From IMG/VR virus record IMGVR_UViG_3300015360_000003, positions 1 through 62,064 of that record: a DNA stretch of 62,064 nucleotides. One strand, written 5' to 3'. Position 1 is the stretch's first letter. Each line of letters begins with the position of its first letter. Source of the stretch: a virus. A model generated the notes under the pieces. The model worked only from the letters and a program-made list of their open reading frames with translations. It was not told the DNA's origin and did not search any database. The position numbers and the translations under genes are program-made. Shown here one piece after another: positions 1,593 to 62,064 of this stretch.

Positions 1593-1967
1593 CTACGCGG
1601 TTATCAAACACTCGTTGTTTTCGCAGTCATTGCAGTTATTGCAGTCATTGCAGCGGGCGCAGTCATTGCAGTTATTGCAGTCATTGCAGCGGGCGCAGTC
1701 ATTGCAGTTATTGCAGTGGGTGCATTTGGTGCAGCGGGCGCAGTCATCGCAGTCATTGCAGGTATTGCAGTTATTGCAGTGGGTGCATTTGGTGCAGCGG
1801 GTGCAGTCATTGCAGTCAGCGCAATTGGTGCAGCCGAAGCACTCAACACAATCGTCACAGTGGTAGCAATTGTATAGCGTCGCAAGAGAAGCTCTCGCAA
1901 GCACTTCACTTCCCCATTTTTCAATCGAGGCTCGGTTTTTGTTTTTGTCAGTGATCCAGGTTTTCAT
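1593..1967 (-). CDS. protein with cysteine at every third residue (paralogue 1)
   Basis: The 124-residue product has a 33-residue N-terminal module (MKTWITDKNKNRASIEKW...) followed by 28 consecutive C-x-x steps of the type NDC, NNC, ARC, TKC, THC. The spacer residues are almost all D, N, R, K, T or H. Such regular spacing suggests a metal-loaded, disulfide-laddered or solenoid-like fold; this is inference. The same architecture occurs at 2339-2833 and 53135-53737, and I recall it from hypothetical proteins of other phages. Its ATG overlaps the stop of the upstream gene (ATGA). A second frame just downstream encodes a short tail also present after paralogue 2. Function unknown. Confidence 0.85.
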   Translation of the reverse strand: MKTWITDKNKNRASIEKWGSEVLARASLATLYNCYHCDDCVECFGCTNCADCNDCTRCTKCTHCNNCNTCNDCDDCARCTKCTHCNNCNDCARCNDCNNCNDCARCNDCNNCNDCENNECLITA

Positions 1968-2218
1968 TTTGTTTCCATTGTTTTAAACATTAAAAAATCG
2001 GGGGGGTAGATAGTCAGTATAAAATCTAAACAGGTGGTAAATTCGGACACGGATAGATCCATCTCGGTGCGGAAATGCATTTTGTATCCATCGATTTTCA
2101 TTCGCTGGATACAGGTCCCGAACCCTTTAATATGCAGGTGGTTTTTTGAGTACGAGTAGCCGCCTTTACTGCTACGGCGTAGTCGGTTGATCTCCGCGAT
2201 TATCTTGTCAGTGCCCAT
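1964..2218 (-). CDS. hypothetical protein, DKIIAEIN family (copy 1)
   Basis: The 84-residue product is clearly paralogous to the gene at 6692-6922. They share DKIIAEIN-LRRSSK, KGFGT-IQRMKIDGY and MDLSVSEF. Compared with that copy, the stop codon is missing at the usual place and reading continues through the leader into MFKTMETK, ending on the next gene's start. The ATG at 2218 was chosen by alignment to the paralogue. Function unknown. Confidence 0.75.
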   Translation of the reverse strand: MGTDKIIAEINRLRRSSKGGYSYSKNHLHIKGFGTCIQRMKIDGYKMHFRTEMDLSVSEFTTCLDFILTIYPPDFLMFKTMETK

Positions 2219-2241
2219 AATTGTTTCCAGTGGTTTAAACA

Positions 2242-2281
2242 TTCAATCGATTCGCTATCTGCAAATAGCGAATCCGTTGAA
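2242..2281 (-). repeat. family-1 intergenic hairpin (copy 2)
   Basis: Identical in its 40 bases to copy 1 at 1514-1553. It lies downstream of the second Cys-repeat gene and upstream of the 2218 start. The surrounding roughly 100 bp are also duplicated, indicating a recent duplication of the Cys-repeat gene with its 3' end. Confidence 0.85.
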
Positions 2282-2338
2282 AGTTTTACTCGGTTACTGT
2301 AGTTTTATACTCCTCAAAAGCTACGCGGTTATCCACCA

Positions 2339-2833
2339 CTAGCTGTTTTCGCAGTCAACACAGTCATTGCAGTTATTGCAGTGGGTGCATTTGGTGCAGC
2401 GGGTGCAGTCATCGCAATCATTGCAGTGGGTACAATCATCACAATCATTGCAGTTATTACAATGGGGGCATTTGGCGCAGTCATTGCAGTTATTGCAATA
2501 AAGGCATTTGGTGCATCGGGTGCATTTGGCGCAGTCATTGCAGTTATTGCAATAAAGGCATTTGGTGCATCGGGTGCATTTGGCGCAGTCATTGCAGTTA
2601 TTGCAATAAAGGCATTTGGTGTATCGGGTGCATTTGGCGCAGCGGGCGCAGTCATCGCAGCGGGCGCAGTCATCGCAATTGGTGCAGCCGAAGCAATCAA
2701 CGCAATCGTCGCAATCGGCGCAATTTCGCAGCGTCACGAGTGAAGCTCTCGCAAGTGCCTCACTTCCCCATTTTTCAATCGAGGCGCGGTTTCTGTTTTC
2801 GTCGGTGATCCAAGTTTTGGGTTTAGTGTTCAT
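2339..2833 (-). CDS. protein with cysteine at every third residue (paralogue 2)
   Basis: The 164-residue product has an N-terminal module like paralogue 1 (WITDENRNRASIEKW). It then runs through 42 period-three positions, 41 of them Cys and one Tyr (TRY). Internal blocks such as AKCTRCTKCLYCNNCND recur nearly exactly, showing growth by in-frame repeat expansion. The protein is about 25 percent cysteine. It lacks the C-terminal domain found in the 53135 relative. Function unknown; metal binding, redox buffering or a structural fibre are possible. Confidence 0.85.
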   Translation of the reverse strand: MNTKPKTWITDENRNRASIEKWGSEALARASLVTLRNCADCDDCVDCFGCTNCDDCARCDDCARCAKCTRYTKCLYCNNCNDCAKCTRCTKCLYCNNCNDCAKCTRCTKCLYCNNCNDCAKCPHCNNCNDCDDCTHCNDCDDCTRCTKCTHCNNCNDCVDCENS

Positions 2834-3420: not shown

Positions 3421-3687
3421 CTAGTCTTTGAACCATTCGTCGCCGATTTTTTCAAAGCAACCGTGGTCCGCTAGGTAGTAGTTGAACTCTTTATGATTGG
3501 AATCGAGCACAACAAACGCGCCAGGTACACAATGGTTGTCCTTTGCTAGTAGCTCCTTCTCGATCTCCTCTGTCGTGTAGCGCTCGATCTCGCAGTCTGC
3601 GATAGCTGCGGCTCTCGTTTCGCCCGCGCCGAACAGCCAATATCCGTATTGTACGACGGCGAATTTAATAGGGGTTTTAGTGTGCAT
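3421..3687 (-). CDS. hypothetical protein, FGAGETRA family (copy 1)
   Basis: The 88-residue product is one of four paralogues (also 6382-6669, 7284-7565, 7954-8202). The family layout is PIKFAV-Q-G, FGAGETRA-A-AD, an acidic helix, a strand with VLxSxHxxF and a C-terminal YL-x-x-xG-x-x-KIG-x-x-WF. It is soluble, with no membrane segment. I recall similar hypothetical phage proteins but no function. The upstream leader has GGAAACAAAATG, as is usual here. Confidence 0.75.
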   Translation of the reverse strand: MHTKTPIKFAVVQYGYWLFGAGETRAAAIADCEIERYTTEEIEKELLAKDNHCVPGAFVVLDSNHKEFNYYLADHGCFEKIGDEWFKD

Positions 3688-3772
3688 TTTGTTTCCATTG
3701 TTTTAAACATTCAATCGATTCGCTTTATCGAGCCACCAGTTTTCATAATTCTTTTCCGGGCATAAAAATTTA

Positions 3773-4390
3773 TCAGGCTTCGGGACGTGGTGCGCGCATT
3801 GCCATGACGACGGCTTTGCAGTGTCCTTCGTCGTGTTCGATCAAAACTTGGCCGCCTTGATACCAGGAAATCGTAAAAATTCCTTCTCCTTCTTTATTTG
3901 CCGTAGCGTCGGTCAGGTACTCAAGATCTATGCAAGAAGATTGGGAATCGATAATAGACTGAATATCGCCTTTTACGTTGGCTATTCTGAGCGCGAATTT
4001 CAAATCAAATTGTTTCCCGTGTGACGCCCCGAACGAAATCTCTACGGCACCAAATTTACAAATAGTTACTCCCGGGCAGTAATTGTTTTTTAAAAACTTG
4101 GATGTGCCGATCAAAAATTTACGGTCATCTGCGGCTAAGAGCAGCGAGAAAGACGCAAGCAACCTATCCGAATTGTTCGGTAACACGTCACGCCACGACG
4201 GGAAATCGACATCCTCACCGGACAGTGAGAAACCCTTTTCGATTTTTTCACTCGAAACGATGTGGATTCGTTTCCCGTCGGTCGCCACTGTGTAGTCCGT
4301 GTCACGGTACGGCGCACGTAGATTTGGGTAGGCACGATCTTTCGACGTTGCCAGATTTAACCAGTCGGTCGGTGATGATATTTTCGTCAT
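3773..4390 (-). CDS. sliding-clamp-like protein (short DnaN C-terminal domain homologue)
   Basis: The 205-residue product carries motifs resembling the last part of bacterial beta clamps. These are ATDGKRIHIV (36-45; compare ATDGHRL), FPSWRDVLPNNSDR (63-76; compare FPDYRRVLPKNPDK) and an end segment KAVVMAMR (about 191-198; compare VVMPMRL). The distances fit domain 3 plus a shortened piece of domain 2, so it is much shorter than a 366-residue clamp. It might form a clamp as a higher oligomer, compete with the host clamp, or bind clamp partners. The homology is inferred by eye; a fold prediction would decide. It sits in the accessory operon, far from the polymerase. Confidence 0.5.
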   Translation of the reverse strand: MTKISSPTDWLNLATSKDRAYPNLRAPYRDTDYTVATDGKRIHIVSSEKIEKGFSLSGEDVDFPSWRDVLPNNSDRLLASFSLLLAADDRKFLIGTSKFLKNNYCPGVTICKFGAVEISFGASHGKQFDLKFALRIANVKGDIQSIIDSQSSCIDLEYLTDATANKEGEGIFTISWYQGGQVLIEHDEGHCKAVVMAMRAPRPEA

Positions 4391-4411
4391 ATGTTTCCAT
4401 TGTTTTAAACG

Positions 4412-4453
4412 TTCAATCGATTCGCTAGTCTCGCGACTAGCGAATCCGGTGAA
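4412..4453 (-). repeat. family-1 intergenic hairpin (copy 3)
   Basis: The longest stem of the family: 12 bp (4419-4430 with 4435-4446) closed by a 4-nt loop, flanked by TTCAA/TTGAA-like arms (one mismatch). It lies between the 4461 gene's stop and the leader of the clamp-like gene. Confidence 0.85.
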
Positions 4454-4460
4454 GGCTTAA

Positions 4461-5075
4461 TTAAGATTGGGTTTGAGTATGGATTGCCCGAAGCATTTTC
4501 AATACTTGAGGATCTTCAATTGCGTTCCAAAGAAAGTCATCTATATGATTGCTACATACCAAAGCTTCAGCTATGGATTTTTCCCATAGCTCGCCAACAT
4601 CGATGTATGAGTTTATGAATGCTTCGAGTAGCACGGCGATTTGGTTATGGTCCCAAGTCAAGACATTACTTGCCCAATCGGATAAGTCGCTGGAGTAAAA
4701 CGATAAGAAACCGGACCGGGACGTAAAGCATTTTTTAATTTGTCTACGCAGTAGTGCCGGATCTACTAGACTGAACACGCGCAAAACCTCCGCGTCTTCG
4801 ATGGTACAAAATATCTGGTCGGTTTGGAAATTGTACTCGCGTGGACTGATTAGTTTTTCAAACGAGATGGCTATGCTGAAGGTATGTGCGAATTGTTCGG
4901 TGTAGTTTTTTGCGTACTGAGAAAAAACCGCCGGCCAACAAATAGCCGCGAATATTACAGCAGAGTTTGGGCATGAGGTGTCCTCAGTACCTTTAATCAG
5001 GTGATCGTAGGCGGTATCCACGGCGTCGGCATGTTCAGTCTGGTAGAATCCTGCGAATGGTAATGTCGTCTTCAT
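4461..5075 (-). CDS. conserved phage hypothetical protein (LPFAGFY family)
   Basis: The 204-residue soluble protein begins MKTTLPFAGFYQTEH and contains SPREYNFQTDQIF near residue 85, followed by an acidic, aromatic-rich C-terminal half. This pattern matches a family of phage hypothetical proteins I recall from many enterobacterial and Pseudomonas phages. No function is established to my knowledge. The ATG at 5075 aligns with that family start; the longer frame only reads the shared leader (MFKQTENI). Confidence 0.75.
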   Translation of the reverse strand: MKTTLPFAGFYQTEHADAVDTAYDHLIKGTEDTSCPNSAVIFAAICWPAVFSQYAKNYTEQFAHTFSIAISFEKLISPREYNFQTDQIFCTIEDAEVLRVFSLVDPALLRRQIKKCFTSRSGFLSFYSSDLSDWASNVLTWDHNQIAVLLEAFINSYIDVGELWEKSIAEALVCSNHIDDFLWNAIEDPQVLKMLRAIHTQTQS

Positions 5076-5099
5076 AATGTTTTCCGTTTGTTTAAACAA

Positions 5100-5137
5100 T
5101 CAATTGATCCGCTATCTGCGACTAGCGAATCTGTTGA
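5100..5137 (-). repeat. family-1 intergenic hairpin (copy 4)
   Basis: The stem 5106-5114 with 5123-5131 contains one position that is a C-A mismatch on the plus strand but a U-G wobble in the minus-strand RNA. This is consistent with selection on the leftward transcript. Confidence 0.8.
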
Positions 5138-5154: not shown

Positions 5155-5553
5155 TTATAGCCACCGGGATGTAAGAGCATAACCACCGTCGGGATCTCGC
5201 ACGTCCGCACCTAGTCCGTTTCTGCCATAGTCTTTACCGGCCTCTGCGGGAATATATCCCTGCGGGAATAGCGCACGCCCTAATGCGTAGATAGTATGAA
5301 ACCCCATGTCCATGCCACAGCCATTTATGCTTAGCGCAGGAGTGCCGCGCAGCGACACAAGACGCAGGCCAAGTACTGCTGCCATCGGGCAGGTAATTCC
5401 GGTTATTTCCCCGTCACGGAGAATAAAAAAACTGATTTTTCGATTCATGCCCGAACGACTCACGGATCGCAGAACGCAGTACACGGTATCGCCGGGCTTC
5501 AACACTGCGCATAGGTGATTACGGTCATCTTCGCGATCTTTTTGCTTTGTCAT
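5155..5553 (-). CDS. conserved phage hypothetical protein (VSRSGM / CGMDMGFH family)
   Basis: The 132-residue product contains LKPGDTVYCVLRSVSRSGMN (about 20-40), a beta-rich middle, and NGCGMDMGFHTIYALGRALF before a C-terminal YALTSRWL. I recall this pattern from a widespread family of phage proteins of unknown function. The invariant Cys-Gly-Met-Asp-Met-Gly stretch suggests a small conserved active or binding site. The ATG at 5553 was chosen because the longer frame is leader read-through. Confidence 0.75.
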   Translation of the reverse strand: MTKQKDREDDRNHLCAVLKPGDTVYCVLRSVSRSGMNRKISFFILRDGEITGITCPMAAVLGLRLVSLRGTPALSINGCGMDMGFHTIYALGRALFPQGYIPAEAGKDYGRNGLGADVRDPDGGYALTSRWL

Positions 5554-5576
5554 AATTGTTTTCCTTGTTTTAAACA

Positions 5577-5619
5577 TTCAATCGATTCGCTAGTCGCCGT
5601 GCCTAGCGAATCTGTTGAA
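5577..5619 (-). repeat. family-1 intergenic hairpin (copy 5)
   Basis: Stem GATTCGCTAG/CTAGCGAATC (5584-5593 with 5603-5612), 9-nt loop, flanked by TTCAA/TTGAA. Placed between the 5623 gene's stop and the next leader. Confidence 0.85.
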
Positions 5620-5622
5620 AGT

Positions 5623-5916
5623 TTAACAACCTAATTCCCCAATTTCGCGGTAGCAGTGAGTGCATTGAGCAGCTGACTCTTCCCCCACTTCTACGCCTAC
5701 CGCTTCATAAGCTTGCCCAATAATTTGCCATTCGTTCGCTTCTCGTAAAAGTGTAGCTTTGAGTACTAGTCGGATGTTGTCCTTAATACACGTAGCGCAT
5801 AGCAGGTCGCCGCAAACTGTGACTCCTAACCGATCATAGCAGCCGGGGAAAGTGCAAGGATGGCGGGTAATGCTTTTAACTATTTTGTTACCCGCAAAGT
5901 TTAGTGCTTTTTTCAT
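5623..5916 (-). CDS. hypothetical protein with two Cys pairs (possible zinc ribbon)
   Basis: The 97-residue product has Cys pairs PCTFPGC (residues 21-26), a second pair CGDLLCATC and a C-terminal CTHCYREIGELGC. This spacing could coordinate one or two zinc ions in a small treble-clef or ribbon-like fold. The middle is helical. Not otherwise recognised. Confidence 0.65.
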   Translation of the reverse strand: MKKALNFAGNKIVKSITRHPCTFPGCYDRLGVTVCGDLLCATCIKDNIRLVLKATLLREANEWQIIGQAYEAVGVEVGEESAAQCTHCYREIGELGC

Positions 5917-5952
5917 AAGTGTTTCCCTTGTTTTAAAGTGTTAACGGCTTCG

Positions 5953-6315
5953 CTAGTCGGCTAAATAGTCAGCTGACAAGCCGTATGTTTTCACGCCGTC
6001 CACATGTACATTATCGAGATCTCCGGCTCCTGGCATACACGGAGAGCAAAACGCGCAATTGATAATGTGAGGCGATTTAAACACGAATAAAAAGTAAGAA
6101 TCGGTCGCGTAGTGACAAATCAAACCGTTTTTGTTGTACGAGAATCCCAATGGTTCGGCGAAGTCGTCGTCATCGGATAAACCTTCAGGATATTCCGCAT
6201 CGAAGTTTTGCAGCCAATCAGGATCGCAGGAGTTCAGCGAGATCACACCGTAGCGAATTCCCGTTTCTACGTCGATGTTAGCTTTGCCGTGTCCGTAGTC
6301 TATTCCGATGTACAT
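5953..6315 (-). CDS. conserved hypothetical protein (GAGDLD family)
   Basis: The 120-residue product starts MYIGIDYGHGKANID and contains CAFCSPCMPGAGDLDN followed by GVKTYGL. This CSPC-xPGAGDLD signature is one I recall from phage and bacterial hypothetical proteins. The cluster of three Cys suggests a metal or redox site. Its stop codon lies within a degraded copy of the family-1 hairpin (5938-5965). Function unknown. Confidence 0.75.
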   Translation of the reverse strand: MYIGIDYGHGKANIDVETGIRYGVISLNSCDPDWLQNFDAEYPEGLSDDDDFAEPLGFSYNKNGLICHYATDSYFLFVFKSPHIINCAFCSPCMPGAGDLDNVHVDGVKTYGLSADYLAD

Positions 6316-53134: not shown

Positions 53135-53737
53135 TTACTCAGCCTCCGCCAGTCGCATCATGTCCGCCAGCGCAACCTCGTTGGAGTCGAAAAACCGTGT
53201 GGGCGAAATCTCGTAGCCGCTAGCCCTGTAAATCTGCATTGCCGCGAATAATGGGGATGTTCTCGCTTCGAGATCGTAACCGGACGGGCCTGCGAGGTGA
53301 ACAGCCCAGCCCGCACGACAGTGGGTCGTCTCGCACACATGCCACCGCTGCATATCGAACGAATCAGGCGTGGCCATCGCCGCAGCAAGCACTGCTTTAT
53401 GAATATCGGGGATGATCGGAATCTTTATTTTTTCGCTTTTTTCGTCGTCGCAGCGGTAGCAGCGGTCCACGCAGTGGTAGCAGCGGGAGCAGCGGGAGCA
53501 GTCATTGCAGTCGTCGCAGTCGTCGCAGTCATCGCAGTCATTGCAGCGGTCACAGTTGGAACAGTTGGAGCAGTCGAGGCAATCAACACAACCGACACAC
53601 TCGACACAATCTCGGCAATCGAAACACTCCATCAGCGTCGCGAGTGAAGCCCGCGCAAGCGCTTCACTTCCCCATTTTTCAATCGATGCTCGGTTGCCGC
53701 TGCCATCGTCGGAGGTTATCCAAGTTTTGCTTTCCAC
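53135..53737 (-). CDS. protein with cysteine at every third residue plus C-terminal HCRAGW domain (paralogue 3)
   Basis: The 200-residue product has the shared N-terminal module (GNRASIEKWGSEALARASLA), then 18 strict C-x-x steps (CFDCRDCVECVGC...) and a short irregular end (VDRCYRC). Unlike the two left-end copies, it continues into a C-terminal domain (about 100-200) with MQRWHVCETTHCRAGWAVHL, IYRASGYEISPTRFFDSNEV and ADMMRLAEAE. I recall this domain joined to Cys-repeat tracts in other phages, without known function. The domain itself has conserved Cys and His and may share the metal-binding theme. Confidence 0.8.
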   Translation of the reverse strand: MESKTWITSDDGSGNRASIEKWGSEALARASLATLMECFDCRDCVECVGCVDCLDCSNCSNCDRCNDCDDCDDCDDCNDCSRCSRCYHCVDRCYRCDDEKSEKIKIPIIPDIHKAVLAAAMATPDSFDMQRWHVCETTHCRAGWAVHLAGPSGYDLEARTSPLFAAMQIYRASGYEISPTRFFDSNEVALADMMRLAEAE

Positions 53738-61895: not shown

Positions 61896-62064
61896 CGAGC
61901 GTGGCAGGTGGGTAATCATCGGTTAATCCCATGTGCGAGAGGGGGACAGGTGGGTAATCATCGGTTACTGCCATGTGCGAGCCTTCGAGCGTGGCAGGTG
62001 GGTAATCATCGGTTAATCCCATGTGCGAGCCTTCGAGCGTGGCAGGTGGGTAATCATCGGTTAA
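61896..62064. repeat. 48-bp tandem repeat array, right end
   Basis: A partial unit (to 61926), a 42-bp variant (61927-61968, with GAGGGGGACAGG replacing the GCCTTCGAGCGTGGCAGG part) and two full units (61969-62016, 62017-62064). The last unit is identical to the first 48 bases of the window and in register with it. Upstream, 61863-61895 has shorter GAGGGGGACAGGGGC repeats. Confidence 0.95.

What the first reader, a model, noticed from the sequence alone, without database searches (positions are those of the whole stretch)
1593..2833. Two neighbouring proteins with cysteine at every third residue
28 and 42 consecutive three-residue steps end in Cys (one Tyr exception), with D, N, R, K, T or H in between, after a shared N-terminal module. 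About a quarter of each protein is cysteine. I know of no described fold with this exact period; metal loading, disulfide ladders or a triangular solenoid are possible. The tracts have clearly expanded in frame by unequal exchange of 9-30-bp blocks while the Cys phase was conserved.
Basis: partly seen in the sequence, partly recalled or inferred. Interest (0 to 1): 0.85.

Follow-up and report, generated by a model that had tools for sequence, protein, structure and literature searches.

The report
Phage proteins with cysteine-triplet repeat rods
This phage genome carries three related proteins, not two, in which every third residue is cysteine. They belong to a large, unnamed phage family that seems to use a cysteine-lined repeat rod where related phage proteins use a known kind of spiral rod, and nobody has tested what it does.

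Summary
ORFs 1593-1967(-) and 2339-2833(-) have 28/28 and 41/42 in-phase Cys. A third member, 53135-53737(-), adds a C-terminal domain. They share an N-terminal cap.

The pattern is a phage protein family (phrog_15341, no function, no Pfam or NCBIfam model). It occurs in Campylobacter phages, Flavobacterium phage FL-1 and many IMG/VR contigs, and was nearly absent from the bacterial genomes searched. In 96 capped homologues, 2455 phase positions are Cys and 7 are not.

Key new evidence: the C-terminal domain of the third protein is fused elsewhere to pentapeptide-repeat solenoids (48 of 73 loci) and to hexapeptide-like repeats. The Cys tract therefore sits in a solenoid's place. The beetle antifreeze solenoid already has inward residues at exactly this three-residue step, so the period is not unprecedented.

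Best model: a capped, length-variable, Cys-cored solenoid rod, cytoplasmic, encoded in the early recombination/replication gene region. The core may be thiol, metal or disulfide. AlphaFold2 models the caps but not the tract (pLDDT<50), so the fold is inferred and the function untested. A RiPP and a selectively neutral DNA minisatellite are disfavoured; a DNA mimic is weakly disfavoured.

The parts
1593..1967 (-). Protein 1 (124 aa): N-cap + 28 Cys triplets + short tail
   Evidence: ORF and translation; phase count; phrog_15341 E=1.2e-15
1869..1967 (-). N-cap of protein 1 (residues 1-33)
   Evidence: alignment; same cap folded with pLDDT about 80-90 in proteins 2 and 3
1623..1868 (-). Cys-triplet tract of protein 1 (residues 34-115, 28/28 Cys; 9/18/36/63-bp DNA units)
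2339..2833 (-). Protein 2 (164 aa): N-cap + 42 triplets (41 Cys, 1 Tyr)
   Evidence: ORF; phase count; phrog_15341 E=3e-21; Foldseek to Campylobacter phage CP20 protein prob 1.00, E=0.023
2723..2833 (-). N-cap of protein 2 (residues 1-37)
2351..2722 (-). Cys-triplet tract of protein 2 (residues 38-161), containing a 54-bp unit x3.3 at 98% identity (2464-2642)
53135..53737 (-).
53627..53737 (-). N-cap of protein 3 (residues 1-37)
53471..53626 (-). Cys-triplet tract of protein 3 (residues 38-89, 18/18 Cys)
53138..53419 (-). C-terminal domain of protein 3 (residues 107-200; motif HxCxxTHCRxGW), the domain that other phages attach to pentapeptide repeats
   Evidence: phrog_31265 E=1.9e-20; pLDDT 54-94; fusions

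Best explanation
These are members of a phage-borne family of capped repeat proteins. A small folded N-terminal cap (beta-hairpin plus helix) starts a tract of identical three-residue steps, C-x-x. Each step puts one Cys into the core of a narrow solenoid rod and two polar residues (mostly S/T/N, then D/G/R/N/Y/K) on its surface and turns. In protein 3 and many homologues a helical C-terminal domain closes or uses the rod. Shown: the family, caps, strict Cys phase, triplet-wise length change, and C-terminal domain sharing with pentapeptide-repeat and hexapeptide-like solenoids. Inferred: that the tract is itself a solenoid, and that the thiols, as thiolate-metal sites, disulfides or both, replace a hydrophobic core. 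Because no signal peptide is evident and the gene sits in the early recombination/replication region, I think it is a cytoplasmic early protein. The rod would act as a scaffold or spacer that presents the C-terminal domain or a polar face to a partner, and rod length would evolve by replication slippage.
For: Cys phase 1161/1163 in 48 N-cap-selected proteins and 2455 Cys: 7 other in 96 capped proteins, with one phase shift. The C-terminal domain is fused to Cys tracts in 74 of the 80 loci most similar to protein 3; when its Bordetella version is the query, 48 of 73 new loci carry pentapeptide repeats, 16 Cys tracts and two a hexapeptide-like beta-helix. A Bordetella plasmid copy is annotated pentapeptide repeat protein and hits PF00805 at 4.5e-57. 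Caps model well, tract does not. In the model of protein 2, isolated bridges at residues 36/39/42 recur at 48/51/54, an offset of 12 as in the antifreeze solenoid (low confidence). 1EZG has C/S/C/A at every third position (PMC8038014). Neighbouring genes: ERF, RecT, YqaJ/RecE, DUF2800 exonuclease, DNA polymerase, helicase, repressors; in the window an Enc34-type SSB, an exonuclease and a helicase lie within about 5 kb of protein 3.
Against: No confident model of the tract (pLDDT<50). No solved homologue: PDB sequence hits are compositional and the Foldseek PDB search gives none at E<1. Tract lengths are not quantised in 2, 3 or 4 triplets and surface residues show no clear coil period; this is weak, since pentapeptide tracts with the same domain show none either. 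The all-Cys core is stricter than packing alone would need, so a metal function could be the real point. Shared domains do not prove a shared fold of the neighbouring tract.
Confidence: 0.5

Rival explanations
1. Phage metallothionein or metal sink: the tract has no fixed fold of its own and wraps around Zn(II), Cu(I) or another soft metal through CxxC pairs; the purpose is metal storage, capture or buffering during infection.
For: Up to 53 Cys per tract with almost no replacement; CxxC is the classic half-site (general knowledge); no export signal evident; AlphaFold2 sees no metal-free fold.
Against: No Pfam or NCBIfam metallothionein hit at E<=10. No metal transporter or metal regulator among the top neighbour families. 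Metallothioneins do not normally have dedicated folded caps exchanged with beta-solenoids.
Confidence: 0.25
2. Surface-charge decoy such as a DNA mimic (as proposed for the pentapeptide proteins MfpA and Qnr) that ties up gyrase or a host nuclease near the phage recombination genes.
For: C-terminal domain shared with pentapeptide-repeat proteins; recombination and replication neighbourhood; protein 3 tract is -10 over 52 residues.
Against: Tract charge is close to neutral: median -0.13 per triplet in 148 tracts, 22% of them positive; proteins 1 and 2 only -7 and -5. No PADLOC hit.
Confidence: 0.08
3. Ribosomally made, modified peptide precursor, like heterocycloanthracin, whose Cys-Xaa-Xaa repeats become thiazoles.
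For: A Cys-Xaa-Xaa core after a conserved leader-like N-terminus is known in Bacillus (Haft 2009, PMC2674419).
Against: No YcaO in the window although the control genomes ring; no NCBIfam hit at E<=10, so no TIGR03601; the N-terminal module is a predicted folded cap; in many members a globular domain follows the repeats; no maturation enzymes among neighbours.
Confidence: 0.03
4. A 9-bp minisatellite whose Cys reading is accidental.
For: The tracts are tandem DNA repeats, and such minisatellites do give Cys runs in bacterial genomes.
Against: Variation is absent at the two Cys-defining bases and high elsewhere; caps on both sides are in the Cys frame in dozens of contigs; Shine-Dalgarno-like sites.
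Confidence: 0.02

Closest known systems
Pentapeptide repeat proteins (PF00805), phage members with the HxCxxTHCRxGW C-terminal domain (phrog_31265)
   Same: Same C-terminal domain in the same place after a long tandem repeat; length-variable, polar-surfaced repeats; both found next to phage recombination genes (Bordetella plasmid copy near YqaJ).
   Different: Repeat is three residues with Cys, not five with Leu/Phe; different N-terminal cap; no PF00805 match; Cys replaces the hydrophobic core.
Beetle hyperactive antifreeze proteins (TmAFP, 1EZG; PF02420)
   Same: Inward-facing residue at exactly every third position (C, S, C, A of a 12-residue coil), polar residues outside, Cys chemistry in place of a hydrophobic core (PMC8038014).
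   Different: Cys only every sixth residue; TxT ice-binding face; secreted and oxidised; no caps; the sequence hit is compositional. CPt10 annotators saw weak PF02420 scores on a homologue.
phrog_15341 (PHROGs v4)
   Same: Unnamed phage family that includes all three window proteins (E 1e-13 to 3e-21) and a homologue with a different C-terminal domain.
   Different: No function, fold or description attached.
Heterocycloanthracin precursors (TIGR03601)
   Same: Cys-Xaa-Xaa repeating unit whose indels respect the unit (PMC2674419).
   Different: Short leader and terminal core, needs cyclodehydratase, dehydrogenase and scaffold; none found here.
Springtail polyproline-II antifreeze bundles (G-X-X)
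   Same: Three-residue repeat with one inward residue per step (PMC10235112).
   Different: Gly-rich, several short helices joined by loops rather than one uninterrupted tract; composition at the X positions unlike.

Membership tests
phrog_15341 | Profile match of N-cap plus Cys tract | tested here: met
   E=1.2e-15, 3e-21, 2e-13 for the three proteins
phrog_31265 C-terminal domain proteins | C-terminal helical domain with HxCxxTHCRxGW | tested here: met
   Protein 3: E=1.9e-20; proteins 1 and 2 lack it
Pentapeptide repeat proteins (PF00805) | At least eight five-residue repeats with central Leu/Phe | tested here: not met
   No Pfam hit for any of the three window proteins; period is 3
Pentapeptide repeat proteins (PF00805) | Right-handed quadrilateral beta-helix | tested here: inconclusive
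   AlphaFold2 tract pLDDT<50
Insect antifreeze proteins (PF02420) | 12-residue TCTxSxNCxxAx repeat with TxT face | tested here: not met
   No Pfam hit at E<=10; Cys at every third residue and no TCT steps
Insect antifreeze proteins (PF02420) | Inward residue at every third position | tested here: inconclusive
   Same sequence period; orientation in the phage tract unknown
Heterocycloanthracin / TOMM precursor | TIGR03601 leader and a cyclodehydratase or YcaO partner | tested here: not met
   No NCBIfam hit; no YcaO in the window, controls positive
Metallothionein | Match to a known metallothionein family | tested here: not met
   No Pfam or NCBIfam hit at E<=10
Metallothionein | Binds several d10 metal ions through Cys | not testable with these tools
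   Needs expression and metal analysis

The most novel reading that the evidence does not exclude
The tract is a new protein architecture: a solenoid nanorod whose whole core is a continuous array of cysteine thiolates, threaded by a chain of metal ions or by stacked disulfides. Phages would lengthen or shorten it one triplet at a time and plug it between caps in place of a pentapeptide-repeat rod.
Probability: 0.3. Interest if true: 0.85.

Novelty: new variant of a known kind. Interest (0 to 1): 0.62.

Why it matters
Dozens of phage contigs read here (in the N-cap and C-domain scans) carry genes with up to 53 cysteines at a strict three-residue step, yet no curated Pfam or NCBIfam model, solved structure or paper found here describes them. 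The link to pentapeptide-repeat proteins gives a concrete, testable idea of fold and role. If the tract is a thiol- or metal-cored rod, it would be a naturally length-tunable cysteine scaffold and an early phage factor worth knocking out.

Tried and rejected
(1) Minisatellite artefact: rejected by position-specific variation and in-frame caps. The 18 of 399 Pseudomonadota 'hits' to phrog_15341 were inspected: apart from the Bosea centre genome, none of the 16 whose Cys-run ORFs could be read was a capped member, nearly all being low-complexity repeat readings (two not read). (2) RiPP/TOMM: rejected. (3) DNA mimic by charge: weakly rejected. (4) Coil number from surface-residue autocorrelation and tract-length modulus: a lag-4 signal (z 2.7) vanished after guarding against segmental duplication (z 1.1), and pentapeptide tracts, a known four-sided coil, show no lag-4 peak either, so the test has no power. 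(5) Structure: two AlphaFold2 jobs and three Foldseek searches gave caps only. (6) Recurrent partner gene: none beyond the recombination/replication module. (7) The single-protein scan of viral contigs found nothing because its patterns were too close to the query; the N-cap alignment worked. (8) Campylobacter phage papers do not discuss the protein.

Full report
WHAT IS THERE. The two ORFs are exactly as described: 1593-1967 minus (124 aa) with 28 of 28 in-phase Cys, and 2339-2833 minus (164 aa) with 41 Cys and one Tyr in 42 steps. The longest uninterrupted Cys run is 30, while 60 shuffles of the window give at most 4. A search of the window with protein 2 finds a third member, 53135-53737 minus (200 aa, GTG start): the same N-cap, 18 Cys triplets, then a separate C-terminal domain. 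All three have purine-rich Shine-Dalgarno-like sites. The window is a 62-kb virus record. Its left end carries small minus-strand ORFs; its right part carries DNA polymerase A, an Enc34-type SSB, exonuclease, helicase and primase. Polymerase and helicase have only relatives under 60% identity in the phage collection.

SELECTION, NOT JUST REPEAT DNA. The tracts are tandem repeats of 9, 18, 27, 36, 54 and 63 bp. All units are multiples of nine with no indels, apart from one weak 18-bp row with 12% indels; the clearest is a 54-bp unit x3.3 at 98% identity in gene 2. Across the 88 nine-base units of the three genes the first two bases of the Cys codon differ once, whereas the other codon positions vary freely. 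Nine-base minisatellites in bacterial genomes also give Cys runs, but these are mostly near-perfect low-complexity readings without caps.

FAMILY. The three proteins match phrog_15341 (unknown function) and have no Pfam match, no PADLOC match, and (proteins 1 and 2; protein 3 was not run) no NCBIfam match. Homologues occur in Campylobacter Firehammervirus phages (CP220, CPt10, CP21 and others) and Flavobacterium phage FL-1. The Campylobacter proteins share a diverged form of the N-cap, and Foldseek links the predicted cap of protein 2 to the CP20 homologue (probability 1.00, E=0.023). An N-cap alignment finds 47 loci in viral contigs but only 4 in a collection of about 85,000 bacterial and archaeal species. 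Of 399 Pseudomonadota genomes, 18 scored; the only confirmed capped member among those read was the Bosea genome used as centre.

THE CYS PHASE. In 48 proteins selected by the N-cap alone, 1161 of 1163 phase positions are Cys. In 96 capped proteins there are 2455 Cys, 7 isolated replacements (4 Ser, 2 Tyr, 1 Phe, all one base from a Cys codon) and one phase shift. The two positions between are polar: first mostly Ser in the wider family (Thr, Asn, Ala in the window), then Asp, Gly, Arg, Asn, Tyr, His or Lys. This fits turns and a polar surface better than an alpha-helix (inference). Tracts reach 53 Cys.

THE KEY LINK. The C-terminal domain of protein 3 was used as a probe. With the window sequence first, 419 viral stretches match and 74 of the best 80 have a Cys tract upstream. 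With the Bordetella plasmid version first, whose protein is a true pentapeptide-repeat protein (PF00805, 4.5e-57), 73 new loci split into 48 pentapeptide, 16 Cys-triplet and 9 other. The last group includes two left-handed-helix-like hexapeptide repeats (L323, L326) and another repeat type (L322). The same domain thus follows at least three repeat types, two of them known beta-solenoid classes. I infer that the Cys tract occupies a solenoid's slot. A second C-terminal domain (CGCF type) recurs after Cys tracts with a related N-cap.

FOLD. AlphaFold2 with 27-sequence alignments models the N-cap (strand, strand, helix; pLDDT about 80-90) and the C-terminal domain (mostly 87-94) but not the tract (<50). 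In protein 2, single-residue bridges after the cap fall at 36, 39, 42 and again at 48, 51, 54, an offset of 12; this is suggestive only. The solved beetle antifreeze protein 1EZG has a 12-residue coil with inward residues at positions 2, 5, 8 and 11 (C, S, C, A) and disulfides between C2 and C8 (PMC8038014); its sequence, read from the alignment, shows that three-residue phase without exception from its first regular coil on. So the period is not without precedent, although an all-Cys version was not found described. Attempts to read the number of sides from surface-residue periodicity or tract length failed, and pentapeptide tracts gave equally flat results.

WHERE AND WHEN. Neighbours of 47 N-cap loci are early-region genes: ERF, RecT, YqaJ/RecE, DUF2800 exonuclease, DNA polymerases, helicases, repressors. 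No metal transporter or RiPP enzyme appears among the top families. No hydrophobic signal sequence is visible at the N-termini. A cytoplasmic early role is therefore likely; the exact partner is unknown.

MECHANISM. Best supported (0.5): a capped, length-variable, Cys-cored solenoid rod that holds or presents the C-terminal domain or a polar face. Because packing alone would not demand Cys at more than 99% of positions, the thiols probably do chemistry, binding metal in the reducing cytoplasm or forming disulfides. A folded-on-metal, metallothionein-like function is the main rival (0.25) and overlaps with the first. A DNA mimic (0.08) is disfavoured by near-neutral charge. A RiPP (0.03) is disfavoured by the absence of YcaO and TIGR03601. 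A neutral minisatellite (0.02) is excluded in practice.

NOVELTY. The family exists as an unnamed PHROG; no description of its repeat was found in the open literature held here. I class it as a new variant of capped repeat/solenoid proteins, with a real chance that the tract is a new architecture. Limits: no experimental data, tract structure inferred, and loci counts depend on pattern-limited scans.

Noticed in passing
1-195 and about 61900-62064: Both window ends carry copies of the same roughly 48-bp tandem repeat (89 shared 25-mers), so the contig is probably circular or terminally repetitive, broken inside a repeat array; proteins 1/2 and 3 would then lie about 10 kb apart.
   Followed up: partly
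L006 2476-3180 (KY421186.2): In Flavobacterium phage FL-1 the annotated CDS APZ82901.1 is the wrong frame (VAPIAPVAP...) of a Cys-triplet gene; the real ORF has a different N-cap and the same C-terminal domain, with a probable sequencing frameshift near its end.
   Followed up: yes
1484-1528, 1960-2004, 2212-2256, 3680-3724, 4382-4426, 5069-5113, 5547-5591, 5910-5954: A 45-nt block with a hairpin is repeated between most small minus-strand genes at the left end, like a reused leader or terminator cassette.
   Followed up: no
1493-1792 and 2221-2520: A 300-nt stretch covering the 3' ends of genes 1 and 2 is 79% identical, so the two genes are probably a tandem duplication.
   Followed up: no
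L171/L241 and L229: Some homologous contigs change frame inside the tract (LLGLLGLL or APTAPAAP), either assembly error in repeats or real frame loss.
   Followed up: no
L150 2501-2899: An intact N-cap followed directly by unrelated sequence with no Cys tract.
   Followed up: no
L019, L043, L076: Several viral contigs carry three or more Cys-triplet genes within about 2.5-14 kb, with different tracts but closely similar caps.
   Followed up: partly
L034 minus strand; L046, L069, L074: Further cap types on Cys-triplet proteins (MTRDEILSCKTREELLKLIE...; C-terminal [LR][RQ]MSE.M.FC, phrog_14105) suggest the repeat has been adopted by unrelated caps.
   Followed up: partly
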